From contig OX393565.1 in NCBI GenBank assembly GCA_947652115.1, positions 13,154,299-13,218,298 on the forward strand: a DNA stretch of 64,000 bases. The letters are read 5' to 3'. Source of the DNA: Blastomussa wellsi (lineage: Eukaryota; Cnidaria; Anthozoa; Scleractinia; Plerogyridae). Shown here piece after piece: positions 2 to 43,375 of the stretch (position 1 is the first letter of the stretch; the number at the start of each line of letters is the position of its first letter). A program made the position numbers and the translations under genes. The notes under the pieces were generated by a model. It ran no database searches and had not been told where the DNA came from. It was given only the letters and a program-made list of their open reading frames with translations.

Positions 2-2955
2 AGACCGGACACAAAGTGGGCGTTCAGGGGCTATTCTGATGTCTATGTGAAGGTTGTGCTTGACCGCCAGCCATTGTTGGGCACATGCCCCTTGCCTGAC
101 TGGCTACGCAACCTTGCACATAGCAGGTCAATGGCGGCACTGGACACCTACCGCGATAATTTGTGTCTCTGGCGCTGCATTGCTGTGCACCAAGGCTCGC
201 TACCACATCGAAGTACAGCAGCAGCTCGTGAGCTTGTCAAGAGTTTCTTCAAACTCAAAACTGTTCCAATCGACTGTCCAAAAACATCACTTGATGAATT
301 AGATAAGATTGAAAAGCATCTCAACAAGGGGGTCAGTTTTTCAGATTGGCTCGGCATCAAGGTTTATCAGCCTGAGCGGGGAGAAGACGGCGAAGTGGTT
401 TGGCATCTTAGAAGAAACTCGCCGGCCAAGCTGACAAACATTCTGACCATCGGCATTTACGAGGGGCATGCCTTTGTCAAAAAAGACATAGAAAAGCTTG
501 CGAAAACGTATGCATGTGTGGATTGCCGCGCGAGATTCACATGAGTTGACAATCTACAACGGCATGTCCAAACGTGTGCCCAAGGGAAGACGATAATCGA
601 TTGCCCGGGCGAAAAAGTCGAAGCCCCGCAGACAGCATTCGAGAAGGCTTTCTATCCAAAACATAGAGCTTCCCCAGAATCGCTATGGTGGCTAGACCAA
701 GAAGCCAAGCGGCGGAAAATTCACATCCACCACGCAATGTGTGGCCACGTAGGTGAGAGGTGGGTTAAGCGGGCACCAGTCGACGGTTACAACCATGAAA
801 CAAAGACCGTATCTCAATACCACGGCTGTCACTGGCACGGGTGCCGAAAATGTCACCCGCACGATCGCGACAAAATCATAACCCACGGTCAAACGCGCGA
901 AGACGGGTGGAAGGCCACGCAGAGGCGCACAAGAACGCTCCGGGAGGCCGGCTACCGCGTAATCGAGGCTTGGGCGTGTGAAGTTGGGGAAATCGAAGCC
1001 GAACCCCCGCAGACCGAAACAAAAAACTACCCGCACGCGATCCTGTACGATTTCGAGGCGTACGGCGACAACAATCATCGGAAGGAGCCCACGTCCATGC
1101 TCACGATCGAGAACGCGCACGTACCAATCTCGGTGAGCATCGGCGACACACTCGAGAGAGAGCCTACCCACATCTGCGAAAGAGACCCCGCAGAGCTGGT
1201 ACGAAAGTTTATGGAAGAGCGGAAGAGGCGCAGAGAAAACATCCGGGCGAAGTTTGTGCCAGAAGACGTGACCCTGCTGATGAATGGTTTAACCAGGTGC
1301 CAGTCGTCGGGTTCAACTCGGGCAGCTACGATCTAAACCTGATAAAAAACCACTTCGTTGACCGCCTTGCTGACACAACCCGCAAAGTCAGAGTGGTCAA
1401 AAAAGGAAAAAAAATAATGTTCTTGTTGACCTGGGGCTTCCGTTTCCTGGACATAATAAACCACCTTGGCCCGGGGACAAGCTACGAAAAGTGGGTTCGA
1501 GCCTACGGATGCACACTGCAGAAATCGTGGTTTCCGTACGGGTGGTTCGACTCGCCCCAAAAGCTCGACTATCCAGGTCTCCCAGACTACCCAGAGCAGT
1601 ACTCACGTCTGAAGGGCGAGCATGTGCTCTCAAGAGAAGAATGGGAGGGGTGCAAGCGCCACTTCGAAGAGGCATGCGCTCCTTCGCGGACTGGCTGCGC
1701 TACTACAACAATCTCGACGTGGCACCTGGCCTCGAGGCTTTGGAAAAGATGCGGGCCTTCTACACTGAAAAAGGAATCGACATCTTGAAAGACGCGGTGA
1801 GTGTCCCGGGGGTGAGTTTGCACTACTTACTCCGGGGATCCGTCGAGAAATGCGCGGAGCTATACAGTCCAGGCAAAGAAGCGTACGAGATGTTGAAAGG
1901 AGCTGTGGTCGGAGGCCCGAGCCTCGTGTTCACGCGCTACCACGAAGTCGGGGTGGCAAAGATAAGATCGCGCCAATACGAAGACGCCCGTCTTTTCAAA
2001 AAGATCTTGGGTTACGACGCCAACGCCCTCTATCTTTCACCCATGTTGAGAGAAATGCTATGCGGGAAGGAGAGGGTCACCCACTACGCCGAAGACGACT
2101 ACTCCCAAAAGGAGGTGGTAGTGCCAGAGCTAACAGGCAGGCTCAAAGAAGGAAAAAGGTTCGGATTTGCCGAAGTCGATATAGAGATTCCGGAGCCCTT
2201 GCACCCAAAGTTTGAGGAAATGTGCCCGTTCTTCTACAACAAAAAGGTGCCGAACGACGTCGTCTCGAATACTTGCGCCAAACAGGCAGAAATCGCGGAG
2301 ACGGGAAAAACTCGTGGGCGCCCTGTCCGCAGAGAGACTGTTGCTGCACGCCCCTCTGCTGCGTTGGTATGTTGACCACGGGGCGGTTATCACACGTGTC
2401 CATCGGTCAATCAACTACCAACCGGGCAAGATCTTTCCCTGGTTCGTGGAGGAGGTCACCGAGGCGCGGCGGACAGGAGACGTGGAATAAAGCAAGGCGC
2501 TGCTGGCGGAGGTGTTCAAGCTGCTAGGGAACAGCGGGTACGGAAAGCTCATCTAAGCCTTGGAGCGGCAGACAAGCGTAATTTACACCAAAGATGAGAA
2601 GGTGGTCGACAGAGCCATGCGAAGCGCGTATTTCTCCGACCTTGATGAGATCGGACAGGCCTATGAGCTGGAAAGCCGCAAGCCAAGGATCACAATCAGG
2701 TGGCCGTTTCAGGTAGGAATCGCTGTCTATCAGCTGGCCAAGCTGCGGATGCTGGAATTCTACTACGACTCCCTCGACAGGTATTTTGACAGAAGAGATT
2801 TTGAGCTCATCCAGATGGACACAGACAGCAACTACATGGCCATCTCCGGGAGCGTCTCGAGGACCTTGTCAGGCCGGAGCTGCAAGCGGAATTCGAGACG
2901 CAGAAGAAGCAGTGGATGGCTTGGGACAAATGGAGCGGCGGTTGATTTGGTTTGA
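2..2955 (+). pseudogene. Type B DNA polymerase of Polinton A, broken
   Basis: The reading frame is open from base 2, so the start lies upstream. The N-terminal part carries a C2H2-like finger (about 505-575) interrupted by a stop at 542. After it comes a Cys/His-rich segment with YHGCHWHGC near 820-850. Next are the exonuclease motifs DFEAYG (about 1050) and GFNSGSYDLNL (about 1303-1335), then polymerase motifs YDANALYL (about 2015-2040), GNSGYGK (about 2530-2550) and DTDS (about 2820). A deletion and frame change near 1280-1300 removes a stretch kept in copy B. More shifts follow near 1690 and 2260-2280, and there are stops near 2488 and 2554. A deletion at about 2940 removes the C-terminal quarter. 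The role was replication of the element. Copy A keeps the N-terminal region that copy B has lost. Confidence 0.88.
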
Positions 2956-2956
2956 T

Positions 2957-4160
2957 CCAAACTCTTTCAATGTTGTAAACTTTCAACGACCAGATCGGAA
3001 CTGTGGCCCTTCTTGCGCCTCCTTCAAGCTCACCGGGTTGGTAGAGATAGCGAACTTGGACAAAAGAGGGGAGCATTTTTTCCGCCTTTCCAACAGACCA
3101 AAAATAAGGAGTTGAGGGCTGTGCAGAAACAGTGTTTTCTTTGATTGCTTCCGCAGGTATTTTCCCCGTCAGCCGGGTGACTTCGTTGTTCAAAGCGACA
3201 ACAACTGCAGGAAGTCTTTTCACCCACGAGGTGGACCGTTGGCCAGGAGGGAGACGCACTTCCACGGCGTATTGGTGCCCGAACAAGCGCTCGGCAAGGG
3301 TGCGGTTGAAACGTTCAACAATGGCCTGGTCGCGGTGAATGTCAACGCGTCCGCGTCGGATATTGGTTTTGTGCTTTTCCATGTCTTTTGAGACGGCGCC
3401 CATGAATTCGCGCCAGGGATCAACCTGCAGCAGTTGAGGCCATTTCAAAGGACCGCGCTTGTAAATCTTCTGAAAGGCCTGGGCGACCTCATCAGAATAT
3501 TTCGAAGTCAAGGGTTCGGCCTCTTTGTAGCGGCTGGCCACGTCGACAACAGCCAGCGCGTATTTGAAAACTTTGCGTCCGCCTGGCAGTTTGTCGTGTG
3601 GCAGAAAAAGAAGGTCCGCCTGGTGGGCCGCGTTTGGTGTGGGCACGTCGAATTTTGGCCGAGGAATGTGCCTCGGAGCGGGCAGGTAAATCTTGCAGAG
3701 GGCTTGGCTTACTAGCAAATGTATCTAAACGTAATTGTGTCATGTCATGCCTTATGTGTTGATTTTCTACTTTTTTGTACTTAGTTTATAATATGAACTT
3801 AGTTTAGTGTTATAGTTGAATATTTGTAATTAATAATATACTTAGTTTGTAATATATACTTAGTTTATAGTAGTTGAATTTTTATGATCTACGATATTAT
3901 TAATCTTATATTATTAGTTTTAGTCTCTTTTTATGTCTGTACAAACACGCCCTCCATGGAAACCAGCTGAGTGTTGTTGGGGCTAGCGTGTTTCTTTTAA
4001 TTAAATAAAGTATACCTACCTACCTACCTACCTACCTACCTAGCCACTTTTTTGCGGCGTCTTCTGGCACCTTGGCGGCCTCGGATAATTTTTTGATAGC
4101 GGCAAGGCCTTTCCAATATCCCCTCGGGCCGTAGTATATCTTTGCGAGTTTGGCATCCAT
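2957..4160 (-). pseudogene. Retroviral-type (RVE) integrase of Polinton A, interrupted
   Basis: The integrase inserts element DNA into the host genome. The catalytic core reads on the minus strand from about 3716 to 2960. Acidic residues lie in HQADLLFLP, LQVDPWREF and RDQAIVERFN, matching the D, D and E of retroviral-like integrases. A basic SH3-like or chromo-like C-terminal region follows. The N-terminal part (start ATG at 4160) is separated from the core by a LINE insertion at 3717-4044. The extreme C-terminus was lost together with the polymerase end, so the open frame now runs on into antisense polymerase sequence down to 2807. In copy B the same gene converges on the polymerase with a 4-base overlap. 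Identification is firm; the gene is not functional as it stands. Confidence 0.88.
3717..4044 (+). mobile_element. 5'-truncated LINE 3' end inserted in integrase A
   Basis: This block is absent from copy B, where the integrase reads straight through. It has no coding frame and repeats TACTTAGTTTATAATATG-type phrases. It ends in a run of TACC units (about 4013-4040). The flanks share CTAGC (3712-3716 and 4040-4044), a plausible target-site duplication. The sequence resembles 17589-17760, downstream of a LINE reverse-transcriptase C-terminus, so it is read as a 5'-truncated copy of the same LINE family. Confidence 0.75.
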
Positions 4161-5205: not shown

Positions 5206-5221
5206 CAAAATATTCAAAACT

Positions 5222-6309: not shown

Positions 6310-6313
6310 TTTT

Positions 6314-6910
6314 TCAATTCAAAATAACTCCGTAGGGGTGCCGAAGCGAGAACACGAGATTCGCAAACTTTCGAGCTTTAAGCTTTGAAATAAGACCTTT
6401 GTACTCATCCTGGGAGAGTTCCCCGGCGTAATCTTCAAAGATGGCTTTCAAAGTCTTGGCCGCGGGGGTGTAAAAGAGAACGACGGCCGCAACGTTCTCC
6501 CGGAAGGAGGCTGTTATGCTGGTCATCTTCTGCGTCAGCACCCAAACGCTGATTCCAATATGTCGGGCAGAAAAGGCAAGATTTACCAGCGGGCCTGTGC
6601 GCCCTTTCACATCTTTCGAGGCTGCACAGTCATCGAGAATTATGAGCGCGTTGGTGTCCTCGAAAAGCCAGGAGACGAGCTTCAACCAAATTTCCACCCC
6701 GTGGTGCGCGCATATTATCACAAACATTCGCGGATCATCTTCACCAATTCGGTGGTAGGTTTTGTTGTGCGCGAACGTCGGGCAGAGGAGCACGATGTTG
6801 TCGAACTTGCCACGAAAAGGGCCATAGATCTGGTCGACCACAAACTGCGATTTGCCTGAATTCGTAGGACCCACAATCAACGCGTTGAACGGGATGTTGC
6901 TTCCATTCAT
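6314..6910 (-). CDS. A32/FtsK-HerA-like packaging ATPase, copy A
   Basis: An intact 198-codon frame from ATG at 6910. Walker A is GPTNSGKS (residues 14-21) and Walker B is ALIILDDC, with Asp93 and Asp94. A glutamine-containing strand (VWVLTQKM) follows, as in packaging ATPases of the FtsK-HerA superfamily. In Polintons and related viruses this enzyme is expected to drive DNA into the capsid. It lies directly downstream of the putative capsid gene on the same strand, with only 7 bases between them. It is the best preserved enzyme gene in copy A. Copy B's version (36292-36884) has a damaged Walker B and several breaks. Confidence 0.88.
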   Translation of the reverse strand: MNGSNIPFNALIVGPTNSGKSQFVVDQIYGPFRGKFDNIVLLCPTFAHNKTYHRIGEDDPRMFVIICAHHGVEIWLKLVSWLFEDTNALIILDDCAASKDVKGRTGPLVNLAFSARHIGISVWVLTQKMTSITASFRENVAAVVLFYTPAAKTLKAIFEDYAGELSQDEYKGLISKLKARKFANLVFSLRHPYGVILN

Positions 6911-6917
6911 TTCTATA

Positions 6918-8102
6918 TCAGTATTGCACAGATTCCAATTGCTGCTCCAATATGTTCATCTGCGAGTCTGATATAACAAAGACGTAGCAGTTCATATTGC
7001 CTCCACCGCTTGCCGGAATCTCGAGCTCAAGCGGTACCCCGTCTTGTGTGTTTACGAGGCGCACGCCGTTGCCGTGCAGCGACTGATCTGCCATGGAGCG
7101 CAGATCGATTAAAAGCCCGAACTTGTCATCGCTGTTGAACTTTGTCATATTCATGTGGGGCGTTTTTTTTCTGTGAAAAGAAGCGACGGACCGTCTCCCA
7201 CATGTCCCTGTATAAGATGCCGTTGTTGTACAGCATGTTAGGCGAGCCGTTCACCGTGACGCTGACTTTCGAGAGGCCGGGGTTGAAGTACTTTTCTGTA
7301 TCTCTGGCCCCCGGAGCGTAAGGCTCGATGAACAGGAGAAGGATTCCTTTCATGGACCTTCTCTGGGGGTTGACTCTGAGGTTAATCCTTTCCTTGGCTT
7401 TTGTGAGGTGTGCATCTGATAAAGCTGGACGTGATCGTACATGTATTCATTGCCAGAGAAATAAACACTGAGCGCTTCTTCCGCCAGAGTCTTGCTTCTG
7501 ATCATTTCGTACTCGAGCTGGATGTCTGTCAGCTTGTATTTCAGTTTTGTTGGGTCAGAGCCTTTGACAACCTGTAAGGCCGGCGCAAGGGTCCGTGGTC
7601 GGTCAGGATCTGGTTGTCCAGTCTGATTCCGAAAACTGCGGAGAGCGCGTTTTCCGCGTCGACGCCCGAGGTTTTCTTATCCTCAGCGTTTGAGCGGATC
7701 TTGCAGAGGTCGGCGCTTTGAATTCCATCGAGCAGCCTGTTGTCCCGCTCCTCCTGCGAGAGGAAAAGGTCCTCCCAGATCTTGAAGATGTCATATCCCA
7801 CCGTGTCCTGCAGTACTTCGCCCCCGTACTTCACAACAAGCTTGTCGACCAGAGCGCGCCCGACATTTTGAACGAGGAAGTTGTTGGGTTCCCCTCCAGT
7901 CAAGTCGATATTGAAAAGCAGTGTGAGCGAGCCGGGCACGAGGACCTCTTCCTCATTCAGCTTGGGCACGGAAACATTCAGGATCTCGCTGGGGTTGGCG
8001 TCGCTACGATCAAAGGTGATGCGCTTTACTGCGCGCTCGGCTTTCATCGCGCCGAGATTTTGTTCTTTGTGCGTTGGCCGAAGATTTGCTTGCACCGCCA
8101 TT
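6918..8102 (-). pseudogene. Putative double jelly-roll major capsid protein, copy A
   Basis: ATG at 8102 (MAVQANLRPTHKEQNLGAMK). The N-terminal half is open to about 7570. A deletion relative to copy B and a frame change follow, and the C-terminal half is split into pieces at about 7360-7500, 7126-7353 and 6918-7154. Conserved phrases such as FLVQNVGRALVDKLVVKYGG, VTVNGSPNMLYNNG and DDKFGLLIDLRSM are beta-strand-like, and the reconstructed span of about 400 residues fits a double jelly-roll capsid protein. Its position beside the packaging ATPase is the usual place for the capsid gene in Polintons. The fold is inferred, not demonstrated. Structural prediction would settle it. Confidence 0.55.
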
Positions 8103-8155
8103 TTGTCTATATTAAACAGAAAAATATTTTTGTTTAAATATACAACAATGGCGGA
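8094..8155. promoter_or_regulatory. Divergent palindromic promoter between capsid and coiled-coil genes, copy A
   Basis: Two genes start back to back with ATGGCGG (8102 on minus, 8148 on plus) and share a 45-base gap. The gap is a near-palindrome centred on AAAAATATTTTT, with TTTAAAC/GTTTAAA arms. Copy B has the same arrangement (38694-38745) in a shorter gap. It probably drives both genes. Confidence 0.55.
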
Positions 8156-9504
8156 AGGTGGAGAGTTTGGACACGACAACCCTGCACTTGACCATGCACT
8201 TGACCACGATGACGGTGGCGATGCCGATGAACAAGAGATAAACCGTCAAAACACAACCGTTTCTTTTGTGCCGGGCACCGCATCGACACCCTACCATGGT
8301 GGCGAACAACATGAACTGGTAACAATGCAGCACGAACAGAGCGGGCTGCCTGAGAAATCCTATGTTGAAGCGCCTTTGTTGGACGATATTGTGGATCCAG
8401 GTGACAAACCACCAATTCTTGAAAGAGCTAGAGACTTTATCAAAAAGAGTTTCCCAACGGTGGACTTTGGAAAATTAGGTCCAATAGGTTTTAGCAAAAA
8501 GGGTGGCAATGAGACAACAGTTGTATCATTTGGTCCACAAGGTGGTGAGACTGAAATTTTCAGAAAAGATGGTGGTCTTCTCAAAAAATTCACAGACAAG
8601 TTCAAAAAAGCCCTTGGGCCAGAAGCTGAATCTCTGATTGCTCAAGATAATGAGAGCATAAGAGAACAACGCCAGATATTGAGAGAGACCGAACAACAAC
8701 AACAAAGAAAGACTGGAAAAATTGCTGCAGAAAAGCAAAAAGCTACCCAAGAGCTTCAAAATCTGAGAAACAGAATTGATCGAACTCAAGCAAAGGTTGA
8801 TGCAACGGATGAAGCAACAGCTAAAAAAATCTTAAAACAGATTTTGAAAATGCAAAAAAAAAAAAGCGAAAAAAGAGGTGGCAGCTCTTGAAAAACGAAC
8901 AAAAGAACAAACAAAAGAACAAAAAAAGGAGGTTGATAAAATCAGAGCAGGCATTCTTGAGACAGAAAAAGCAAGAAACGCTCTTCAACAAAATCTTAAC
9001 AACACGAGAGCGCTTTTACAACTGCGTGAGCAAAAAACCGACCTTCAACGACAAAATGATAAAGATCAGAAAATCAACAACGATGAGAACGTCTCACCCT
9101 CTGCCAAAGAAGCCGCGGAAGAAAGAGTTGCGGAAAGAACCGAGGAGCTTGCGCGTCTGCAAACGCAGATTGAGGAAAGAGAAAGTGCGCTTCCACTTCG
9201 TGAGAGGGTCAAAGAGATCTTCAAAAAATACGGCGTGACGGTTACAGCAGTCCTTCTTGCCGCTGGTGCCACGATTAGTGCTGTCATTGGTGCCATTAAC
9301 AACTCGCTGAAAGCCACCGGCAAAGGGTTGGGAAATGGCTTGAAAGAGATTGGCAAAAAACACTCTTCAATCCTTCCTGGGTTAATTGGCTCGATTGTTT
9401 CTTTCCTATTCAAAGCAGCTGGTCAGGTCATCTCTTTTCTGGCAGAGCACACCTGCCTTTTGATTTTGGCTGTTGTGGCCTTTCTGGTCGAGACCTATAA
9501 GTAG
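8148..9504 (+). pseudogene. Coiled-coil and membrane virion-type protein, copy A (frameshifted)
   Basis: ATG at 8148. The first part (8148-8891, 247 codons) has an acidic N-terminus, a conserved globular section (about residues 100-160, with DFGKLGPIGFSKK) and a long Gln/Glu/Lys coiled coil. The frame breaks at a run of 12 A near 8857. The rest continues in the next frame to 9504, with more coiled coil, then PLRERVKEIFKKYGVTV and three hydrophobic stretches. Copy B has the same protein with other breaks. It is transcribed divergently from the capsid gene. I recognise it as a recurrent protein of this element family in cnidarians; its function is unknown. A virion spike or membrane-acting role is a guess. 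Confidence 0.65.
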
Positions 9505-10808
9505 TTAACGAAATGACAAGAATGCCAAACCCGCAACTGCAACCGCGCCAACAGCGACAGCTATTTTGTTCACGTCATGTCTCTGGCTTTCGGAGCCAGC
9601 CGTTGGCGTTGGTTCAGATTCCGTTTGCTCCTCTGCAGCTGTTTGGGAGACAGGCGCTGGCTCTTTTTTTGCCATTGCTGCTTTGTGTATCGGATTCGAA
9701 GGGTGACTGTTTGGCGGGTTTATTTTCGATTTCCCGCCATCCATCAGCCGAAGCGCTGCTTTTTTTGTGCTTTTGTTTGCCCCGTTGTTGACCCCCAGCT
9801 TCATGCCCGGTATCGCTTGTTTCAACCGGTTGTTGTAGCCAACCGTGCTTTCTGTGTTTAAAATCATCCGCGCGGGCATCAGCCAGGCCCCCGGGCAAAC
9901 AGCAAGGTTCAACCATACCTTTGCCTCATCCACCGCCAGTTGGTACCGCTTCACGCTTATTGCCAGGTCAGGCTGCCTTATAGTGTCTTCCACCAAGACG
10001 AGGAACTCACTTTGCGCCTTCTTTGCGCACCCCCCATCGCCCAGGATGCTGCTCCGGACATTGACTTGCGCGCCCAAGACACAGTAAACGAACGCCTCTA
10101 TCGACTGGTTTATTTGCGACAAACCCGCCTTGGTCAAACCTGCCGAGGTTTTGGGCGCGAACCAATTGAATTGCTCTTCAGCGGCGTCGTTTCTTATAAA
10201 ACATACTGAAATTCCCTTTTCTGACGCCTTTGGGTCCTCGTCGTCGAATTTTGCTTTTGCCGATGGATAGGGCACGTCCAGTATGAAAAGGTCGCGGCAA
10301 TAAATGTAAACGCTCCCCAGCCCGTGTTTTGCCCCCCTCGTGAAGGGGAAATCGGTTGACGGGGGAACGCCGAACTCTGCGCATGATCTTTTGTAAGACG
10401 CCACGTCATGGTTGTTGGTCTGACTGAATGTTGGATGCCTCCGAGCTGATACAGGATGCGCCGAACCGTGAAGTACACGTGGAAGATGTAGAAAGCCCGC
10501 ACCTGCGGCGGCAGATTCAGCGTTGTGTGCTCTTTGTCAAATACTTCTCGAGATATTCCGCAACCTGTCGTCGCACACCACACTGCAAAGTTCAGCTGCT
10601 GTTCCCAGAAAGATAGATTTGGCCCCGCTTGCCATTTTTTTGCGGGCATTGACGTTTCGAACTTCGGTTGTTCCTGTTGGAATACCTCTCTGAACTTTGT
10701 TGTAAAATACTGGTCAGGGGCGACATAAATGTTGATTGCTTTGTTGAATATTTCTTCAAACTTGGCGCCGCGTCTTCCAGTGGAACTGCTGGAACCGGCA
10801 GCGAACAT
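9505..10808 (-). pseudogene. Large virion-type protein with C-terminal anchor, copy A (5' truncated)
   Basis: Two overlapping frames make one gene: 10808 to about 10400, then 10404 to 9505. Conserved phrases include YVAPDQYFTTKFREVF, GPNLSFWEQQLNFAVW and AGLTKAGLSQINQSIEAF. The C-terminal 30 residues form a hydrophobic helix (IAVAVGAVAVAGLAFL). The N-terminal region present in copy B (to 40947) was removed by a deletion, which joins this gene directly to the next plus-strand gene at about 10808-10831. The stop at 9505 abuts the convergent gene ending at 9504. Length, anchor and neighbours suggest a structural protein; no known domain. Confidence 0.6.
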
Positions 10809-10830
10809 GTTTCTGTGCTGGGCGATAACA

Positions 10831-11292
10831 GCTCGAAAAGTGATTCACTATTCCGTGGTCTCTCTTGGCGTTGCAAGTGCCGCCCTGCCTTCCGGGGCCG
10901 TTGCATCTTCACTCACTGGTGTCGGAATTGTGGTCGGAGCGCCTGTTGCTGGAATAGCCGCCCTTTCAGGGTTTGCTTCCACAGGCCTGTCTGTTGTTAA
11001 CAAGAAGCTGGAAAGGAAAGTTAAAAAGCACACGAAAATTCAAGCTCTGGCCCTTGCAAAGTATGACTCAATAAAAAGCTCCGTTTCTCAAGCTCTTGAC
11101 GATAACAATGTTTCCGACACAGAATTCAAACAAATAACTCGTGAAACGCAGAAATATCGTGAACTCAAAGAGAGACTGCGGGAAAACTTCACGGAAAAAC
11201 AGACTGATTTACGCCAGCCGGATCTTGAAAAGATAAAAAAACAGGTTCGGCAAGAGTTTGGAAAAAACTGGCGGCGTCCAGCACAAATTTGA
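10831..11292 (+). pseudogene. Membrane/coiled-coil protein, copy A (5' truncated)
   Basis: The open frame carries a hydrophobic Ala/Gly/Val-rich region (about 10845-10995, VVSLGVASAALPSG) and then a basic helical region ending in EFGKNWRRPAQI. Copy B (41688-42301) shows the missing N-terminus, with the phrase PSAPPIYPELPLE. The 5' end was deleted together with the minor-capsid gene, so the first codons of the present frame (from 10729) are antisense remains of the neighbouring gene. Function unknown; probably a membrane-associated virion protein. Confidence 0.6.
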
Positions 11293-11418
11293 ACTAAACT
11301 TTGAGACAAAAAACACAAAATTCTCTCTGAGTGTTATAAAAAATTGATAACGCGTTGTCACGCGTGACCGGCGTAAAGTGAAAAATATTGCAAGATTTGT
11401 CTTCGAAGGATGATAGTC

Positions 11419-11568
11419 TTAGTCTTTTGGGTTAATCGAAGCTCGTTTCTGTGCCTCTTCAATAGCCTGAACACACTCGTATGTTATTCTTCTAACATCA
11501 TTCAGCAGGGGCGACGAAGAAAGTTCATCTATTGCGTATGCGATGATATGAATTAACAACAAAAACAT
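11419..11568 (-). CDS. Possible 49-residue hydrophobic-leader ORF
   Basis: A short frame from ATG 11568 to the stop at 11419. It has a hydrophobic N-terminus (MFLLLIHIIAYAID) like a signal or anchor, followed by a charged helix (TYECVQAIEEAQKR). It lies in an otherwise gene-free part of copy A, between two convergent or outward-facing gene groups. No homologue is recognised and copy B lacks the region, so there is no comparative support. Confidence 0.25.
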   Translation of the reverse strand: MFLLLIHIIAYAIDELSSSPLLNDVRRITYECVQAIEEAQKRASINPKD

Positions 11569-12030
11569 GACGCTCTCTCTTATACTCTATAACTTTCGAC
11601 CTTTAAAATATTGCATAATCATATCTTTCCTTGGCAACCATAATCACCCTGAGGTCATAACAATATTTTAATAAACCCTTGGCAACCATTATCACGTTGT
11701 TTTACATTTCTGCGTGCTGAAATTTTGTCTTTTCAGCACTCTGAAATGTGAAACTATTGTTTTACACGTGGAAAACAATTGTTCTTCAGAGTTGGGCGCG
11801 TGATATTAATCAATCATGCGTGCTGGGCAATAAACAATTCAGTGTTGTCATGTCTTTCTGTCAAAATAAACCCACGCTTTGATTTCGTCACAAAGTCTAA
11901 TAACCCCTGCTGCTATTCATCCGTGACCTTTGGTCGAATAACAGAATAATTATAAAAGCTTCCCTCGCCATTTTATAAAGTTGCTTTAAAACACCGCTCT
12001 TCAAAGAATTCAAAAGAAAATGTTCTCCTG
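11569..12030. other. Gene-free AT-rich stretch in Polinton A
   Basis: No supported gene. AT-rich, with two near copies of the phrase CCTTGGCAACCAT (about 11630 and 11680) and scattered short inverted repeats. It may hold promoter or termination signals for the flanking genes; nothing specific is visible. Confidence 0.4.
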
Positions 12031-12662
12031 TCACACGTATTTTATAAAGATTTCGCAGTCTTCGTCTTGAGGCCAGTGAAATGATTCAAGGTAGTGTTTT
12101 TCTCCATTTTCAAAACATGCGGCACATAAACCAGTTTTTCCGCAAACATTACATTTGCTGCAAGAGATTATTTTTGTAACTCGCCCAAGTTTTTCGCAAA
12201 ACGGTGCCTCATCCCACTTTTTTCCCGGCGCGCAAGTTCTTTTATTTCCTGTTCAGACATTTCGTCTACAACATACTCCTTGCATAATATTTCAATTTCC
12301 GCCGCTAGTTCTTGTTCAGACATTTCGTCTACAACATACTTCTTGCATAATATTTCAATTTCCGCCGCTAGTTCTTGTTCAGGCATTTCGTCTACAACAT
12401 ACTCCTTGCATAATATTTCAATTTCCGCCGCTAGTTCCTGTTCAGACATTTCGTCTACAACATACTACTTGCATAATATTTCAATTTCCGCCGCTAGTTC
12501 TTGTTCAGGCATTTCGTCTACAACATACTTCTTGCATAATATTTCAATTTCCGCCGCTAGTTCTTGTTCTAATTCTGCATCGTTGCTGGTCATGCTGATC
12601 ATAATGTTTGTGTCTCTTTTATAACAAGTATGCAAATCTCTAACTGCTTGCTCTTTTGTCAA
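12031..12662 (-). pseudogene. Tandem-repeat protein with C-terminal zinc cluster, copy A
   Basis: The minus-strand frame starts at 12662 (MTKEQAVRDLHTCYKR). It enters a block of 21-residue repeats with the core EQELAAEIEILCKKYVVDEM, helical and acidic. One repeat carries a stop at about 12467. After the repeats a frame change near 12230 leads to a second open segment ending at 12031. That segment contains CSKCNVCGKTGLCAACFENG, a clear Cys-rich zinc-binding pattern, and an acidic aromatic tail. The two segments together read as one gene with a helical repeat stalk and a zinc cluster. Copy B has lost it. Function unknown. Confidence 0.5.
12254..12568 (-). repeat. 63-bp tandem repeat array (5 units) inside a coding region
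   Basis: Units start near 12254, 12317, 12380, 12443 and 12506, exactly 63 bases apart and almost identical. The period is a multiple of three, so copy-number changes keep the reading frame. Each unit encodes 21 residues with a Cys-Lys pair and alternating Ser/Pro at one position. Confidence 0.9.
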
Positions 12663-12674
12663 GTATGCAAAGCT

Positions 12675-12988
12675 CTAACTGGTTGACATCAGCTCATGCA
12701 AAACACGTTCAAAATTTTTCTTTACTTGTTGACACAGCTCGTGCAAAACACGTTCAAAATTTTTCTTCGCCTTTTCTTGTTTGCGAAGAAGCCGCCGTTT
12801 AAGGTTGTTCCCGCCGCAAGCATAACATAATCGGTAATCGCTCAAAACTCCAGCGCCGTAGCTGCGGCATGGTGCCGGCTTTTGCATTCCCTTTTTTATT
12901 TGGAAGTTATGCTGCGAGCAATATTCTCCGACACACCGTTTGCCGCAGTTCGTACCAACCACACGCAGTTGTTTTCTCCGTGTACCAT
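12675..12988 (-). pseudogene. TIR-embedded zinc-cluster gene, copy A right end
   Basis: Orthologue of the genes in both TIRs of copy B. The likely start is ATG 12988 (MVHGENNC). Cys/His positions are visible in CGKRCVGEYCSQHN and LCYACGGN, separated by a basic stretch, suggesting a small zinc-binding protein. Relative to copy B the frame is shifted near 12930 and one Cys of the middle cluster is changed to Tyr (PCRSYG). The C-terminal KKNFERVLHEL segment is tandemly duplicated (about 12690-12765). Function unknown; its place in the TIR means an intact element would carry two copies. Confidence 0.55.
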
Positions 12989-13055
12989 TGTATAACAAGG
13001 CGCCGCCACTTCTGTCTAATTGTGCGAACCTGCCAGGGGTTGTCCTTCTTCGACA

Positions 13056-13229
13056 AGTAGTATATCCTGAGGAAAACAAATACACACCTGATCATCACCG
13101 TTTTATTTTCCTGTTTTAACCCCCCCCCCCCTTTGCTCACTTCGTACACCAGGGGGGGGGGGGGGTTTAAAACAGGAAAATAAAACAGTGGTGATCAGGT
13201 GTTATTTGTTTTCCTCTGGATATACTACT
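13056..13229. repeat. Terminal palindrome at right end of Polinton A
   Basis: A 174-bp imperfect palindrome. It begins AGTAGTATATCC and ends GGATATACTACT. The arms contain GAGGAAAACAAAT and its complement, then a 12-C run opposite a 14-G run around a loop of about 20 bases (CTTTGCTCACTTCGTACACC). It could fold into one long hairpin. The outermost base is taken as 13229. Copy B ends in palindromes of similar length but different arm sequence. Confidence 0.85.
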
Positions 13230-17464: not shown

Positions 17465-17760
17465 ACAGATCTGACACTTTCTAAACCGAAGAGAGAGTTT
17501 CTAAAATAAAGTTTTATATATAGCAGCGCAAGGCTTTGGAACCAACTCCCAAATGAAGCAAAACTAACGGAATCTATATATTCATTTAATAAATGTATCA
17601 AAACGTAATTGGGTCATGTCATGCCACATGTGTTGCTCTTGTACTTAGTTTACAATATGTACTTAGTTTGTTAGAGTTGAATTTTTGTAGTTTTAGACTC
17701 ACCATATCATTAATCATGTACTTAGTTTATAATATGAACTTAGTCGGTTGAAAGCCTGAA
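17465..17760 (+). pseudogene. LINE C-terminal fragment, part 2, with 3' UTR
   Basis: Continues the coding frame interrupted at 15982 (SKPKREFLK, then one stop, then ARLWNQLPNEAKLTES). A non-coding tail from about 17589 follows, rich in TACTTAGTTTA-type phrases. The tail matches the LINE insertion in integrase A (3717-4044), so both belong to one family. Confidence 0.6.
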
Positions 17761-17847
17761 ATTTTCTTTTCAGGTCTTTGCTCCAGTAGTGTTATGGCTG
17801 CATTCGCATATCAACCGTATCTGCTTAATTGCCACTGTTGGAAGTAG

Positions 17848-17892
<45 letters not shown>

Positions 17893-17960
17893 GTATAACA
17901 ATATAATTTGGTTTTATCAACTGGGTTGATAATGTCAATTGGCCACCGTAAAGAGATTCA

Positions 17961-17996: not shown

Positions 17997-18091
17997 CGAA
18001 TCAAGGAATTGTGCGTCGTGTGTTTTTATATACAGAAAGATGGAGCTTCGCTATTGGCTGGTGCCTGGTAACGTGAAAACTTCGGAATAAA

Positions 18092-30016: not shown

Positions 30017-30071
30017 GGTTTATGAGATCTATTTGCTTCAGTGCTCCTTTTGAATGCTTTAGCTTACGCTC

Positions 30072-30237
30072 AGTAGTAGATCAGGAGGTTAACGAATACC
30101 ACCACGTCGAGCAACCGTTTAGATATTGATCCCAGGAGAAAGAAGCTCGCTTTTTGCTCGCTTCTTTCTCCTGGGAGCAGTAATATCTAAACGGTTGCTC
30201 GAGAGGTGTGTATTCGTTAACCTCCTGATCTACTACT
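30072..30237. repeat. Terminal palindrome, left end of Polinton B
   Basis: A 166-bp imperfect palindrome from AGTAGTAGATC to GATCTACTACT with a central loop of about 15 bases (CTCGCTTTTTGCTCG). The arms differ at one block (ACCACCACGTCG against ACACACCTCTCG), forming a bubble. It equals the reverse complement of the right end (42951-43119) apart from a small deletion near 30128. Confidence 0.9.
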
Positions 30238-30530
30238 TGAAGAACAACCCCTGTCAGGTTCGAACAATTAGACAGAAGCGGCGGAGCCCAATGGTACACG
30301 GAGCAAACAACTGCGAGTGGTTGCTGCGAAATCGGCAAAAGAACTGCGGCAAAAAGTGTGACGGAACATATTGCTCGCAGCATAACTGGCAAATAAAAAC
30401 CATGCAGCTGTGGCATCGGAATTTTGACCGACTATGCGCGCATTGCGGAGGGCACACGCTACAACAGCGGCTTACACGCATAGGGAAAAAAGCAAAGAAA
30501 AATTTTGAACTTGTTTTGCACGAGCTGATG
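30072..30530 (+). repeat. Left terminal inverted repeat of Polinton B
   Basis: Matches 42634-43119 in inverse. It includes the terminal palindrome and most of the zinc-cluster gene, and stops at GAGCTGATG. A deletion of about 25 bases near 30395 separates the arms. Confidence 0.88.
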
Positions 30531-30627: not shown

Positions 30628-30876
30628 ATGGCTGAGCAAGTAACGTGGCAGGATATAGAACAAGCACTCGCGGAAATTGATATTGAAAAACTGTTAGAAC
30701 AAATAAAACCCGAAACTCGGAATGTGTTAGATGAACGCATACCCCCGGAAGCCCAAGAGCGTCTGCCTGAACCTCTGTTTCCAAAACCCTTCAGACCCAG
30801 AGTACCCCCAAGGCAAAAAAGAACGACAAAAAGCAGCGTTCTAAAATGTTTCATCCAGTCCGTCCACAGAAAGTAA
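30628..30876 (+). CDS. 82-residue ORF between TIR and polymerase
   Basis: ATG 30628. An acidic helical N-terminus (TWQDIEQALAEIDIEKLLEQ) precedes a Pro/Arg-rich section (PFRPRVPPRQKR). It lies between the left TIR and the polymerase. Copy A offers no comparison because its left end is outside the window. The C-terminal codons may be distorted by the nearby deletion that removed the polymerase N-terminus. Function unknown. Confidence 0.45.
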   Translation: MAEQVTWQDIEQALAEIDIEKLLEQIKPETRNVLDERIPPEAQERLPEPLFPKPFRPRVPPRQKRTTKSSVLKCFIQSVHRK

Positions 30877-30895
30877 AATCGAAAGGGGGAGGGAG

Positions 30896-33277
30896 GTGAG
30901 ATGGACGGTCAGAGGGCATGAAGAAAACCTCACAGAGTTTTTCATGGAAAAGATTCGAGACGATGACGAACCGCCGCAAGCCAAAACAAAAAGCTACTCG
31001 CACGCGATCTTGTACGATTTCGAAGCATTTGACGACTCCAACCAGCGGAAGGAGCCCACGACCATGCTTTCGATCGAGAACGTACAAGTACCAATCTCGG
31101 TAAGCATCGGCGACACGCTCGAAAGAGAGCCCACCCACATCTGCGAAAGAGACCCCGCAGAGCTGGTCCGCAAGTTTATGGAAGAGCTGAAGAGGCGCGG
31201 AAAAAACATCAGGACCAAAGTCCGGGCGGAGTTTGTGCCAGAAGACGCGTGTCTGCTGCCGAAAAAGCAGTGGCTAAAACTTGATGAATGGTGCAACCAG
31301 GTGCCTGTCGTCGGGTTCAACTCGGGTATCTACGATCTGAACCTGATCAAAAACCACTTCGCTGGCCACCTTGCTGACACAACCAACAAAATCACAGTGG
31401 CAAAAAAAGGAAAAAAGATTATGTTCTTGCTGACCTGGGGCTTCCGTTTCCTCGACATAATAAATTATCTTGGACCGGGGACCAGCTACGAAAAGTGGGT
31501 CCGAGCCTACGGAAGCACAATGCAGAAATCGTGGCTTCCGTACGAGTGGTTCGATTCGCCCCAAAAGCTCGACTATCCAGGGCACCCAGACTACCCAGAG
31601 TGGTACTTACGTCTGAAGGGCGAGCATGTGCTCTCGAGAGAAGAATGGGAGGGGTGTGTGCGCCTGTTCGAAGAAAAAGGCATGCGCACATTCGCGGACT
31701 GGCTACGTTTTTACAACAATCTCGACGTGGCACCTGGCCTCGAGGCTTTGGAAAAGATGCGGGCCTTCTACACCGAAAAAGGAATCGACATCTTCAAAGA
31801 CGCGGTCAGCATTTCGGGAGTGAGTTTGCACAACTTACTCCGGGGAACGGTCGAGAAAGGCGCGGATCTCTGGAGTCCAGGGCAAGAAGCATATGAGATG
31901 TTGAAAGGCGCTGTAGTCGGAGGCCCGAGCATCGTTTTCACACGCTACCACGAAGCCGGTGTGACAAAGATAAGATCGTACCAACGAAAAGATGCCCGCC
32001 TGTGCGAAAAGATTTTGGGTTACGACGCCAACGCCGTCTATCTTTCAACCATGTTGAGAGAAATGCCTTGCGGGAAGGAAAGGGTCATCCACTACGCCGA
32101 AGACGACGACTCCCAAGCGGAGGTGGTGGTGCCAGAGCTAACACGCAGGCTCAAAGAAGGAAAATGGTTCGGATTTGCCGAAGTCGATATAGAGATTCCG
32201 GAGCACCTGCGCCCAAAGTTCGAGGAAATGTGCCCGTTCTTCTACAACAAAAAGGTGCCGGACGAAGTGTTCCCGGAACATATGTTCGAATACTTGCGCC
32301 AAACAGGCAGAAATCGCGGAGACGGGAAAAAACTCGTGGGTGCTTTGTCCGCAGGGAGACTTTTGCTCTTTGCTCCTCTGTTGCGTTGGTACTTGGACCA
32401 CGGGGCGGTAATCACACGTGTCCACAGGACAATCAACTACAAGCCAGGCAAGATATTTCCGTGGTTCGTCGACGAAGTCACCGAGGCGCGGCGGACAGGA
32501 GACGTGGAAAAAAGCAAGGCCCTGCTGGCAGACGTTTTCAAGCTGCTTGGGAATAGCGGGTACGGAAAGCTCATCGAAGCGTTGGAGCGGCAGACAAGCG
32601 TAATTTACACCAAAGATGAGAAGGTGGTCGACAGAGCCTTGCGAAGCGCGTATTTCTCCGACCTTGATGAGATCGAGCAGGCCTTTGAGCTGGAAAGCCG
32701 CAAGCCAAGGATAACAATCAGGCGGCCGTTTCAGGTAGGAATCGCCGTCTACCAACTGGCCAAGTTGCGGATGCTGGAATTCTACTACGATTTCCTCGAC
32801 AGGTATTTCGACAGAAAAGATTTTGAGCTGATGGACACAGACAGTAACTACATGGTCATCTCCGCGGAGCGGCTAGAGGATCTTGTCAGACCGGAGCTGC
32901 GAGCGGAATTCGAGACGCAGAAGCAGCAGTGGCTGGCTTGGGACAAATGGAGCGGCCGCACGCCCGGGCTCTTCAAACTCGAGTGCGAGGGGAGCCGGAT
33001 GATCGCGCTCTGCTCAAAGTGTTACTTCGTCGAGGAAGCGGGCGAAAAAAAGACGTTCAGCACGAAAGGGATGTCGAAGAGGCAAAACGAGATAACCTGG
33101 CAGCGTTTCAAGGCAGCTTTGGAAGGAAACAAGGTTATGGCAACCAACAGAGGTTTCACGATGAGTGACGGTCAGATGGTTACTTACGAGCAGCAGAAAC
33201 TGGGGCTGAGCTCTTACTACGACAAAAGGTGGGTGCTGCCCGACGGAATTCACACAGAACCAATAGAATTTCACTAG
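30896..33277 (+). CDS. Type B DNA polymerase, copy B (N-terminus deleted)
   Basis: A 793-codon open frame. Exonuclease motifs are DFEAF (Asp41), GFNSGIYDLNL (about residues 139-149) and YNNLDV (about 272). Polymerase motif A is GYDANAVYL (Asp377), motif B KLLGNSGYG (Asn553) and motif C DTDS (647-650). A late KCYF matches the KxY element. The insertions around EVDIEIPE suggest a protein-primed (viral/organellar) B-family enzyme that copies the element. Compared with copy A, about 900 bases encoding the finger and Cys/His region are missing, and two residues before DTDS differ. The start chosen is simply the first ATG after the deletion. Its stop overlaps the convergent integrase stop by 4 bases. 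Confidence 0.9.
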   Translation: MRWTVRGHEENLTEFFMEKIRDDDEPPQAKTKSYSHAILYDFEAFDDSNQRKEPTTMLSIENVQVPISVSIGDTLEREPTHICERDPAELVRKFMEELKRRGKNIRTKVRAEFVPEDACLLPKKQWLKLDEWCNQVPVVGFNSGIYDLNLIKNHFAGHLADTTNKITVAKKGKKIMFLLTWGFRFLDIINYLGPGTSYEKWVRAYGSTMQKSWLPYEWFDSPQKLDYPGHPDYPEWYLRLKGEHVLSREEWEGCVRLFEEKGMRTFADWLRFYNNLDVAPGLEALEKMRAFYTEKGIDIFKDAVSISGVSLHNLLRGTVEKGADLWSPGQEAYEMLKGAVVGGPSIVFTRYHEAGVTKIRSYQRKDARLCEKILGYDANAVYLSTMLREMPCGKERVIHYAEDDDSQAEVVVPELTRRLKEGKWFGFAEVDIEIPEHLRPKFEEMCPFFYNKKVPDEVFPEHMFEYLRQTGRNRGDGKKLVGALSAGRLLLFAPLLRWYLDHGAVITRVHRTINYKPGKIFPWFVDEVTEARRTGDVEKSKALLADVFKLLGNSGYGKLIEALERQTSVIYTKDEKVVDRALRSAYFSDLDEIEQAFELESRKPRITIRRPFQVGIAVYQLAKLRMLEFYYDFLDRYFDRKDFELMDTDSNYMVISAERLEDLVRPELRAEFETQKQQWLAWDKWSGRTPGLFKLECEGSRMIALCSKCYFVEEAGEKKTFSTKGMSKRQNEITWQRFKAALEGNKVMATNRGFTMSDGQMVTYEQQKLGLSSYYDKRWVLPDGIHTEPIEFH

Positions 33278-34218
33278 ATGTCAGACGGAGGAAGAGTGGT
33301 GTTTGGTGGGACAACCAGCAGCTCTTCACGCACAAAACCGCGCCCTGGTCCGTCGCGCAAATAGTAGAGAACAGTGTTGAAAACTTTCAACGACCAGATC
33401 GGATCTGTGGTCCTTCTTCCCCCACCTTCCAACTCTCCTGGTTGGAAGAGATAGCGAACTTGGAAAAGAGAGGGGAGGATTTTTTCGGCTTTCCCAACTG
33501 GCCGAAAATAAGGAGTTGAGGGCTGCGCAGAAACAGTGTTTACTTTGATTGCTTCCGCAGGTTTTTTCCCCGTCAGCCGGGTGACTTCGTTGTTCAAAGC
33601 CAAAACAACTTCAGGAAGTCTTTTCACCCACGTAGTGGACCGCTCGCCCTCAGGCAGACGCATTTCCACGGCGTACTGGTGCCCGAACAAGCGTTCGGCA
33701 AGGTTGCGGTTGAAACGTTCAACAATGGCCTGGTCGCGGTGAATGTCAACAAGTCCGCGCCGGATATTGGTTTTGTGCTTTTCCATTTCTTTTGAACGGC
33801 GCCCATGAATTCGTGCCCGGGGTCAACCTGCAGCATTTTTGGCCATTTCAAAGGCCCGCGCTTGAAAATCTTCTGAAAGGCCTGGGCGACCTCATCGGAA
33901 GTTTTCGAAGTCAAGGGCTCGGCCTCTTTGAAGCGGCTGGCCACGTCGACGACGGTCAGCGCGTATTTGCCCGTTGGGCAGCTTGTCGTGTGGCAGAAAA
34001 AGAAGGTCCGCCTGGTGGACTGCGTTGGGTGTGGACACGTCGAATTTTGGCCGAGGAATGCGCCTCGGAGCGAGCATCTGCCAGAGGGCTTGCTTCACCA
34101 GCCACTTTTTTGCGGTGTCTTCCGGTACCTTGGCGGCCTCAGATAATTTTTTAAAAGCGGCAAGGCCTTTCCAATAGCCCCCCGGGCCGTAGTATATCTT
34201 TGCGAGTTTGGCATCCAT
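33274..34218 (-). pseudogene. Retroviral-type integrase, copy B (two frameshifts)
   Basis: ATG at 34218. The N-terminal helical part (YYGPGGYWKGLAAFKKL) is followed by the catalytic core with HQADLLFLP, LQVDPGHEF and RDQAIVERFN carrying the D, D and E. The C-terminal part includes VRYLFQPGELEGG. Frames change near 33960 (after the first Asp) and near 33790 (before the Glu helix). Unlike copy A there is no LINE insertion and the true C-terminus is present. The 5-bp flank of this element is consistent with a retroviral-like integrase, which makes 4-6 bp duplications. Confidence 0.88.
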
Positions 34219-37488: not shown

Positions 37489-38700
37489 TTAGTTTTGCAC
37501 AGATTCTAATTGCTGCCCCAATATAATCATTTGCGAGTCACTAATCACGAAAACGTGGCCGTTCACATTGCCTGAGCCACTGAGATTTCGCTCGAGCTCG
37601 AGCTGAAGCCCGTCTTGTGTGTTTACGAGGCGCGTGCCGCTGCCGTGCATTGCGTGATCCGCCATTGAGCGCAAATCGACCAGAAGCCCGAACTTGTCAT
37701 CGGTGTAGAACTTTTTCAGATTCACGTGCTGTGTTTTGTTTTTTGTCTTGCCAAAGAAGCGGTCAAGTTCGCCCCAAATATCTTTGCCTTCGATGCCGTT
37801 GTTGTAGAGCCAGTTGGGTGAGCCATTCACCGTAACAGCGACTTTCGTCAGGTCTGGGTTAATGTACTTTTCTGAATCCCTGGTGCCGGCTGTGTAGGGC
37901 TCAATGAAGAGAAGAAGAATGCCTTTCAGGGACCTTCTCTGGAGGTTTACTCTGAGGTTTATCCTTGAGTCAGTGGTTTTTGAGAAGGTGGCCACCTGAT
38001 CCCGCATCACATGGTCGTATAACAACTCCTTTCCCGCGGAGTAAACGCTGCGCGCGTCGTCCGCCAAGGTCTTGCTTCTCAGCATTTCGTACTCGAGCTG
38101 GATGTTTCTCAGCTTGTATTTCAGTTTATCCGGATCAGAACCTTTGACAACCTGCGAGGCCGGCGCAAGGGTCAGCTCAAACACGAGGTCGTGAAAGAGA
38201 GCTTGGGGATAAAAGACTCAGTGGTCTTTCAGGATCGACACGCGTCGACACCCGCGTCGACACCCGAGGTTTTTTTTAACTCCCGCTCTTGAGCGGATCT
38301 TGCAGAGGTCCTCAGTCTGGATGCCCTCGAGTAGTATGTTGTCCCACTCCTCTTGCGAGAGGAAAAGGTCCTCCCAGATCTTGTAGATGTCATAATTCAA
38401 CGTGAACTGAAGTGTGGTTCCAACGTACTTCACAACCAGCTTGTCGACCAGAGCACGTGTGACGTTTTGAACGAGGAAGTTGTCTGGGCGCCCTCCATCC
38501 AAGTCGATGTTGAAAAGCAGTGCGAGCGAGCCGGGCACGAGGACCTGGTGCTCATTAAGCTTGGGAACTGTTACATACAATGTCTCGCTGGGGCTGGCTT
38601 CGCTACGATCAAAGGTGATGCGCTTGACCGCGCGCTCGGCTTTCATCGCGCCTAAATTTTTGTCGTTGTGCGTTGGACGAAGGTTTGCTTGCACCGCCAT
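37489..38700 (-). pseudogene. Putative double jelly-roll major capsid protein, copy B
   Basis: ATG 38700. The N-terminal 160 codons are open. A small deletion and frame change near 38260-38290 and a stop near 38219 separate them from the C-terminal open frame (38184-37489), which is longer and better preserved than in copy A. Strand-like segments include RINLRVNLQRRSLKGILLLF and HVFVISDSQM. The fold is inferred from size, composition and the position between the ATPase and the divergent promoter. Confidence 0.55.
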
Positions 38701-38745
38701 TTTGTATTAAATAGAAAAATATTTTTGTTCAATACACAATGGCGG
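38694..38745. promoter_or_regulatory. Divergent palindromic promoter, copy B
   Basis: Same layout as 8094-8155: CCGCCAT on one side, ATGGCGG on the other, and AAAAATATTTTT in the middle. The gap is 38 bases here against 45 in copy A, but the symmetry is kept. Confidence 0.55.
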
Positions 38746-42633: not shown

Positions 42634-42654
42634 CATCAGCTCGTGCAAAACAAG

Positions 42655-42897
42655 TTAAAAATTTTTCTTTGCTTTTTTCTCTATGCGTGTAAGCTGCTGT
42701 TGTAGCGTGTGCCCTCCGCAATGTGCGCATAGTCGGTCAAAACTCCGATACCACAGCTGCGGCATGGTGCGGGCTTTTGCATTCCTTTTTTTTATTTGCC
42801 AGTTATGCGGCGAGCAATATTTTCCGTCACACTTTTTGCCGCAGTTCTTTTGCCGATTTCGCAGCAACCACTCGCAGTTGTTTGCTCCGTGTACCAT
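42655..42897 (-). CDS. TIR-embedded zinc-cluster protein, right copy
   Basis: Likely start ATG 42897. CGKKCDGKYCSPHN and LCAHCGGH are visible. A stop at 42655, close to the inner TIR edge, makes it shorter than the left copy. The codons for the central Cys pair are changed (PQLWYRSF). Two copies per element, one in each TIR and pointing inward, is a property of the family. Confidence 0.45.
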   Translation of the reverse strand: MVHGANNCEWLLRNRQKNCGKKCDGKYCSPHNWQIKKRNAKARTMPQLWYRSFDRLCAHCGGHTLQQQLTRIEKKAKKNF

Positions 42898-42950
42898 TGG
42901 GCTCCGCCGCTTCTGTCTAATTGTTCGAACCTGACAGGGGTTGTTCTTCA

Positions 42951-43119
42951 AGTAGTAGATCAGGAGGTTAACGAATACACACCTCTCGAGCAACCGTTTA
43001 GATATTACTGCTCCCAGGAGAAAGAAGCGAGCAAAAAGCGAGCTTCTTTCTCCTGGGCGCAGTAATATCTAAACGGTTGCTCGACGTGGTGGTATTCGTT
43101 AACCTCCTGATCTACTACT
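42951..43119. repeat. Terminal palindrome, right end of Polinton B
   Basis: A 169-bp imperfect palindrome with the same sequence as the left end in inverse, with a central AGCGAGCAAAAAGCGAGC loop region. The arms are unpaired at the CACACCTCTCG / CGACGTGGTGG block. Confidence 0.9.
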
Positions 43120-43375
43120 CGCTCCATGACATACATGTCTAAGATCTTAACTTTCAGTTTATTTAGCGTTCCTTCTCGATAGAAGATGGTCCACATATTG
43201 CTTGACTAGCCTTTTCTGGACAACATATTCCTGCTAAAATTCTCTATGGCATCCTCGTCATTTCGGCCTTATGTGCTACCGAGCACGGAAAGGATTAAGT
43301 AAGTAAGTATTAAGTAATCCTCGTCATTCATTTTACCTGCATCAAAGGCCAAAAATGTAACAATGAATATGTTTA

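What the first reader, a model, noticed from the sequence alone, without database searches (positions are those of the whole stretch)
13056..13229. Polinton ends are long hairpin-forming palindromes whose shape, not sequence, is conserved
All three visible ends (13056-13229, 30072-30237, 42951-43119) are imperfect palindromes of 166-174 bp running from AGTAGT to ACTACT. Copies A and B share recognisable sequence in the adjacent zinc gene, yet their palindrome arms are almost unrelated. Keeping the fold while the bases change suggests selection on a terminal hairpin, as in hairpin telomeres of some linear DNA viruses. Polintons are usually described with plain TIRs and protein-primed replication, so a foldback cap would be notable.
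Basis: partly seen in the sequence, partly recalled or inferred. Interest (0 to 1): 0.88.

Follow-up and report, generated by a model that had tools for sequence, protein, structure and literature searches.

The report
Polinton transposons with hairpin-forming tips
The three visible ends of two virus-like Polinton transposons, in what is likely a coral genome, are long near-perfect palindromes whose two halves have changed together while the sequence drifted, so each end likely folds into a hairpin that would rebuild a double-stranded replication start on a single strand, a kind of end I did not find described for this group.

Summary
The palindromes are real and at the stated coordinates (174, 166, 169 bp). 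They fold 18-24 standard deviations better than shuffles; equal-length neighbouring DNA does not. They belong to two related Polintons: B complete (30072-43119), A cut by the window edge (1-13229). In B both palindromes lie inside a 5-bp direct repeat, so they are element ends, not MITEs added outside. They start and end with (AGT)2/(ACT)2, the commonest vertebrate Maverick end motif, linked in print to jump-back protein priming (PMC8097293). A-B identity is 89/164 in the palindrome, 148/166 beside it. My reading: each tip likely folds into a hairpin that rebuilds the duplex origin on displaced strands. A covalently closed cap is not supported (no flip-flop, no Rep or resolvase domain). Main weakness: only two independent elements; the host-genome search did not complete (30 attempts) and other scans found no relatives.

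The parts
13056..13229 (-). Element A, right end: 174-bp terminal palindrome; conserved edges 13203-13229 (outer) and 13056-13082 (inner); C-tract facing G-tract at the stem top
   Evidence: fold -75.9 kcal/mol, z -17.7, 0 of 200 shuffles; arms 74/79 aligned positions identical
30072..30237 (+). Element B, left end: 166-bp terminal palindrome; conserved edges 30072-30098 (outer) and 30211-30237 (inner)
   Evidence: fold -79.4 kcal/mol, z -23.7, 0 of 200 shuffles
42951..43119 (-). Element B, right end: 169-bp terminal palindrome; conserved edges 43093-43119 (outer) and 42951-42977 (inner)
   Evidence: fold -86.7 kcal/mol, z -23.2, 0 of 200 shuffles; 164/166 identical to the left palindrome in the same orientation
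30072..30530 (+). Element B left terminal inverted repeat (palindrome is its outer third)
   Evidence: self-BLAST with 42634-43119, 92.4% over 486 columns
42634..43119 (-). Element B right terminal inverted repeat
30067..30071 (+). 5-bp direct repeat CGCTC flanking the left tip of B (target-site duplication)
   Evidence: 5-mers equal, 6-mers not
43120..43124 (+). 5-bp direct repeat CGCTC flanking the right tip of B
30845..33277 (+). Element B DNA polymerase B frame (pPolB); lacks roughly residues 92-556 of a longer relative
   Evidence: Pfam DNA_pol_B_2 3.7e-09, above cut-off; 1230 relatives, 120 listed, the 2 that carry names being from the coral Oculina patagonica; tblastn coverage gap
33624..34094 (-). 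Element B retroviral-type integrase core, one piece of a broken gene
   Evidence: Pfam rve 4e-06, below the curated cut-off
37489..38706 (-). Element B frames corresponding to the capsid-like region of A
   Evidence: the frame 38218-38706 resembles A's frame; the A-B match 6913-9458 / 37484-40042 is 80% identical
2807..3724 (-). Element A integrase core
   Evidence: Pfam rve 4.1e-04, below the curated cut-off
6314..6955 (-). Element A packaging ATPase of the Pox_A32 type
   Evidence: Pfam Pox_A32 4.7e-07, above cut-off; the same stretch also matches the Zot ATPase family, 1.4e-04; 1538 relatives
7541..8245 (-). Element A frame with a weak match to a major capsid N-terminus
   Evidence: Pfam Capsid_N 0.039, below cut-off

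Best explanation
The visible tips of these two Polintons are 166-174-bp palindromes that begin and end with the Polinton end motif AGTAGT/ACTACT, and each likely folds on a displaced single strand into a hairpin whose stem would rebuild the double-stranded start site for what is predicted to be protein-primed replication. Inferred steps: (1) pPolB with its terminal-protein region starts at the AGTAGT end by jumping back 3 nt and displaces one strand. (2) In adenovirus (recalled) and bidnavirus the two ends of a single strand pair with each other (panhandle); here the 3' tip would pair with the copy of itself 166-174 nt further in, so each end remakes the origin alone. (3) The base of the stem (27 nt) carries the recognised sequence. 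The rest of the stem only has to pair, so it drifts quickly as long as both arms agree. (4) Agreement is kept by selection on the stem and perhaps also by the outer arm being recopied from the inner arm. Shown directly: the palindromes, their place inside the TSD of B, the end motif, mirrored changes between A and B, and the polymerase, integrase and ATPase matches. Not shown: any single-stranded form, any terminal protein, any replication.
For: Strong fold at 3 of 3 visible ends and none in 3 of 3 flanking controls. Tips inside a TSD. (AGT)2//(ACT)2 is the commonest end motif of vertebrate Mavericks and is expected there to serve jump-back priming (PMC8097293, passages). Of the first 27 nt, 6 of 6 A-B differences fall at the same positions in both arms, 5 of them fully compensated. 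Over 61 columns, 20 changed alike against 8 in one arm only; coincidence of places has hypergeometric P 1.3e-9. If the arms had drifted independently at the A-B rate, 3 of 61 (A) and 7 of 62 (B-right) arm mismatches have P 2e-9 and 3e-6 (the null rate of 0.38 is my choice). Conservation is highest at the stem base and absent at the top. Polymerase, integrase and ATPase matches are present.
Against: Only two independent elements, lying 17 kb apart in one genome, and A shows one end only. Palindromes of other copies could not be examined. Six of B-right's seven arm mismatches (ungapped alignment) recur in B-left, so they predate insertion: perfect pairing is not required and was not restored in every cycle. 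Vertebrate Mavericks are described with TIRs of 46-1447 bp, and the words hairpin and palindrom do not occur in the text of PMC8097293, so the hairpin may not be needed for Polinton replication in general. B's polymerase frame lacks much of the N-terminal region and A's has frame breaks, so neither copy is shown to be active.
Confidence: 0.45

Rival explanations
1. End healing by copying: the 3' tip folds back and the outer arm is resynthesised on the inner arm after erosion, so the arms agree through copying and not through selection on an origin.
For: Explains 85-95% arm agreement within a palindrome with 52-63% agreement between A and B in one step per change; Streptomyces protein-capped telomeres also fold their palindromic 3' overhangs for end patching (PMC4513846, passages).
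Against: Six of B-right's seven arm mismatches are shared with B-left, so they passed through replication uncorrected. It also needs a reason why the palindrome is kept at all.
Confidence: 0.2
2. The palindrome serves integration, synapsis or packaging, for example by giving the integrase or packaging ATPase the same site in both orientations.
For: Integrase and ATPase matches are present. The conserved 27 nt are duplicated at both edges of each palindrome, which doubles any protein-binding site.
Against: A doubled binding site does not need about 75-80 nucleotides per arm with an unrelated but paired centre.
Confidence: 0.15
3. A palindromic foldback or MITE captured at the tip of an ancestor was then carried along without function.
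For: Sharp inner edge at ACTACT; stem-top sequences differ completely between A and B.
Against: The palindrome begins with the Polinton end motif itself and lies inside the TSD at both ends of B. No solo copy among self-matches above 60 bp in the window. Arms of a neutral passenger should drift apart; they did not.
Confidence: 0.12
4. Covalently closed hairpin telomeres, as in poxviruses, or rolling-hairpin ends, as in parvoviruses; the integrated palindrome is the extended form.
For: AAV ITRs are likewise 125 nt of palindromic sequence followed by a unique part (PMC11575299, passages). A one-base bulge sits at the same place in A and B in the gapped arm alignments.
Against: No flip-flop between the B ends; no Rep, HUH or resolvase match in the frames scanned; jump-back motif and pPolB point to protein-capped ends.
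Confidence: 0.08

Closest known systems
Vertebrate Mavericks/Polintons (PMC8097293)
   Same: (AGT)2//(ACT)2 end motif, TIRs, type B polymerase, retroviral-type integrase, packaging ATPase, capsid-like frame (weak match)
   Different: TSD here is 5 bp exact, not 6. The outer third of the TIR is a hairpin-forming palindrome; the words hairpin and palindrom do not occur in that paper.
Bidnaviruses (BmBDV; PMC4061559, PMC4938981)
   Same: Polymerase of polinton origin and ITRs
   Different: Both papers say their ITRs form no hairpins; PMC4938981 says the ITRs form a panhandle instead.
Streptomyces protein-capped telomeres (PMC4513846)
   Same: Protein-primed ends with palindromes that fold on the 3' overhang; minimum telomere 167 bp
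   Different: Several small palindromes instead of one long stem; internal origin; terminal protein and Tap unrelated to pPolB (recalled). An analogue, not a relative.
AAV/parvovirus hairpin ITRs (PMC11575299)
   Same: Terminal palindromic sequence followed by a unique repeat part
   Different: Double-hairpin shape, not a straight stem; Rep nicking and 3' self-priming instead of protein priming; no Rep found here.
Poxvirus hairpin telomeres (PMC8956199, title and abstract start in a search listing only)
   Same: Mismatched hairpin at linear DNA ends
   Different: Covalently closed (recalled) with flip-flop forms; closure not testable here, flip-flop not seen.

Membership tests
Polinton/Maverick | protein-primed type B polymerase | tested here: met
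   Pfam DNA_pol_B_2 3.7e-09 in B; A matches long relatives from residue 173-220 on, broken by frame changes. Protein priming itself was not tested.
Polinton/Maverick | retroviral-type integrase | tested here: met
   rve E 4.1e-04 in A and 4e-06 in B, both below the curated cut-off; B's gene is in pieces
Polinton/Maverick | packaging ATPase | tested here: met
   Pox_A32 4.7e-07, above cut-off, in A; B's frame 36373-36708 had no Pfam match at 0.01
Polinton/Maverick | double jelly-roll capsid protein | tested here: inconclusive
   Capsid_N E 0.039 in A, below cut-off
Polinton/Maverick | TIRs ending (AGT)2//(ACT)2 | tested here: met
   motif as in PMC8097293
Polinton/Maverick | 6-bp target-site duplication | tested here: not met
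   5-bp CGCTC exact, 6-mers unequal. A lost C on the left would make it CGCTCC. One insertion only; I call B Polinton-type on the other features and leave strict membership open on this one.
Covalently closed hairpin telomere | flip-flop forms of the end | tested here: not met
   B ends in the same orientation; two ends only
Covalently closed hairpin telomere | closed ends on free DNA | not testable with these tools
   no free DNA or reads available
Parvovirus-type rolling hairpin | Rep/HUH nicking enzyme | tested here: not met
   no such Pfam match in 51 of 51 B frames of at least 90 aa (list) and 34 of 34 A frames of at least 110 aa (list), scanned; A is cut at the window edge

The most novel reading that the evidence does not exclude
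A third kind of viral DNA end: protein-primed mobile viruses of animals whose tips are self-folding hairpin origins, so that each end can restart replication from a single strand alone. It would join the adenovirus-type and parvovirus-type end strategies in one element and give a route to single-stranded viruses with a Polinton polymerase.
Probability: 0.3. Interest if true: 0.85.

Novelty: new variant of a known kind. Interest (0 to 1): 0.68.

Why it matters
How Polintons replicate is inferred from adenovirus, and no free form has been studied at its ends (my knowledge). A conserved terminal stem predicts a single-stranded intermediate and an origin that works without the second end. Both predictions are directly testable, and they bear on how ssDNA bidnaviruses could have arisen from a polinton polymerase.

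Tried and rejected
The protein database has many relatives but gives no DNA, so their ends could not be read. The third protein search, with the frame that crosses the palindrome, found nothing.

Rejected: sequencing or assembly artefact (stems imperfect, shared mismatches at both B ends, inside a TSD); MITE added outside the tips (TSD outside the palindrome); 'zinc gene' (no support). In one search the figure 164/180 for the inner TIR of B-left against B-right is an artefact of a truncated, ungapped alignment across an indel. One search replaces it: no difference between the B ends in alignment columns 180-322.

The region 55642-60943, which might have been a third Polinton, is a retroelement.

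Full report
What is there. The window holds two related Polinton-type elements. Element B is complete, 30072-43119, with TIRs 30072-30530 and 42634-43119 (92.4% over 486 columns), a type B polymerase frame, integrase pieces and a frame resembling A's capsid-like frame. Element A runs from beyond the left edge to 13229, with polymerase pieces, an integrase core, a Pox_A32-type ATPase and a weak capsid match. A and B are 74-88% identical over their matching inner blocks and 68-75% over the TIR blocks. The host is likely a coral: of the 120 relatives listed (1230 found), two carry a name, both Oculina patagonica. Only the right end of A is in the window.

The palindromes. All three visible ends are palindromes of 174, 166 and 169 bp. 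They fold at -75.9, -79.4 and -86.7 kcal/mol with z of -17.7, -23.7 and -23.2; 0 of 200 shuffles match in each case. Equal stretches just inside give z of -0.26 (A), -0.58 (B-left) and +0.67 (B-right). In a scan of the whole window for ungapped palindromes, B-right and A score 40 and 39 and the next best is 17. B-left does not stand out in that scan because indels split its stem; it is seen with 56-nt arms at 89%.

They are the true ends. CGCTC flanks B directly on both sides (5-mers equal, 6-mers not). The palindromes lie inside this duplication, so they were part of the integrated DNA. Vertebrate Mavericks have 6-bp duplications and most often (AGT)2//(ACT)2 ends, which that paper expects to serve jump-back in protein-primed replication (PMC8097293, passages). 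Here the motif fits and the 6 bp do not, unless one C was lost. No further copy of the palindrome was seen among window self-matches above 60 bp.

How they evolve. They are not at the base of the stem: 21 of 27 outer and 21 of 27 inner positions are identical, and the six differences sit at the same six positions in both arms, five fully compensated. Over 61 ungapped arm columns, 31 are unchanged, 20 changed alike in both arms, 8 changed in one arm, and 2 changed in both but unpaired in one element; 2 further columns had gaps and were set aside (A against B-right). Towards the top the two sequences are unrelated (493 of 500 shuffles align at least as well) but each still pairs with itself. The whole palindrome is 89/164 identical between A and B-right (15 gap columns); the adjacent 180 nt are 148/166 (28 gap columns). 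So the stem has drifted further than its neighbourhood while its two arms stayed together: arm agreement within a palindrome is 58/61 (A), 55/62 (B-right) and 51/60 (B-left), while between A and B it is 52-63% (ungapped). With two elements this is one comparison. The P values given (1.3e-9 for coincidence of places; 2e-9 and 3e-6 for too few arm mismatches) assume independent positions and, for the last two, a null rate of 0.38 that I chose.

Results against a simple story. B's arms disagree at several places in the middle of the stem, and six of the seven mismatches of B-right recur in B-left. They were therefore present before insertion and tolerated. In the gapped arm alignments A and B both have a one-base bulge at about position 28, through absence of different bases from the outer arm; I do not know whether it matters. 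The B ends show no flip-flop (164/166 same orientation, 151/164 flipped). No Rep, HUH or resolvase match appeared in the 51 B frames and 34 A frames scanned. B's polymerase lacks roughly residues 92-556 of a long relative and A's is broken, so activity of either copy is not shown.

Mechanism (inferred). Protein-primed elements leave a displaced single strand that must regain a duplex start site. Bidnaviruses, whose polymerase comes from a polinton, have ends that form no hairpin (PMC4061559, PMC4938981, passages) and form a panhandle instead (PMC4938981). Here each tip could do it alone: the 3' ACTACT would pair with the AGTAGT 166-174 nt further in and offer the polymerase a blunt, correctly spelled end. 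That accounts for the motif at both edges of the palindrome, for conservation concentrated at the base, and for free but paired drift above. Streptomyces telomeres are a working analogue: protein-primed, palindromic, folded on the 3' overhang (PMC4513846, passages). AAV ITRs share the layout of terminal palindromic sequence followed by a unique part, but use Rep (PMC11575299, passages). Copying of one arm from the other can act together with this and cannot be separated here.

Literature. Ten searches of an open-licence library showed no paper on hairpin or palindromic Polinton tips among the titles and abstract starts listed; the lists were cut (15 of 34, 15 of 18 and 15 of 41 shown). I read passages of six papers (PMC4061559, PMC8097293, PMC8363768, PMC4513846, PMC4938981, PMC11575299) and none in full. 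Most subscription papers are not held, so novelty is provisional.

What is missing. The host genome search did not complete (30 attempts), and scans of viral contigs and genome contigs gave no relative. Whether these palindromes are general in the group is therefore open.

None of this called for new odds.

Noticed in passing
16003-21113: Element with long inverted repeats (411 nt at 99%, plus further blocks) around frames with GIY-YIG (E 3.7e-05, above cut-off) and reverse-transcriptase (7.2e-04, below cut-off) matches: looks like a Penelope-like retroelement (label recalled).
   Followed up: partly
25792-26589: Inverted repeat with 260-nt arms at 99% and a 234-nt spacer: a young foldback-like insertion with no match to the Polinton palindromes in the self-match table.
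   Followed up: no
12243-12569: Tandem array with 63-bp period (95-98% identical) inside element A, near its right TIR.
   Followed up: no
30604-30974: B's polymerase region lacks roughly residues 92-556 of a longer relative, so B was moved in trans or lost this part after insertion.
   Followed up: partly
13120-13165: Stem top of A is a run of 12 C facing a run of 14 G; a possible site of slippage or of G-rich structures.
   Followed up: no
55642-60943: Retroelement with protease, reverse transcriptase, RNase H and integrase matches, followed by tandem repeats with a period near 91 bp (60384-60943).
   Followed up: partly
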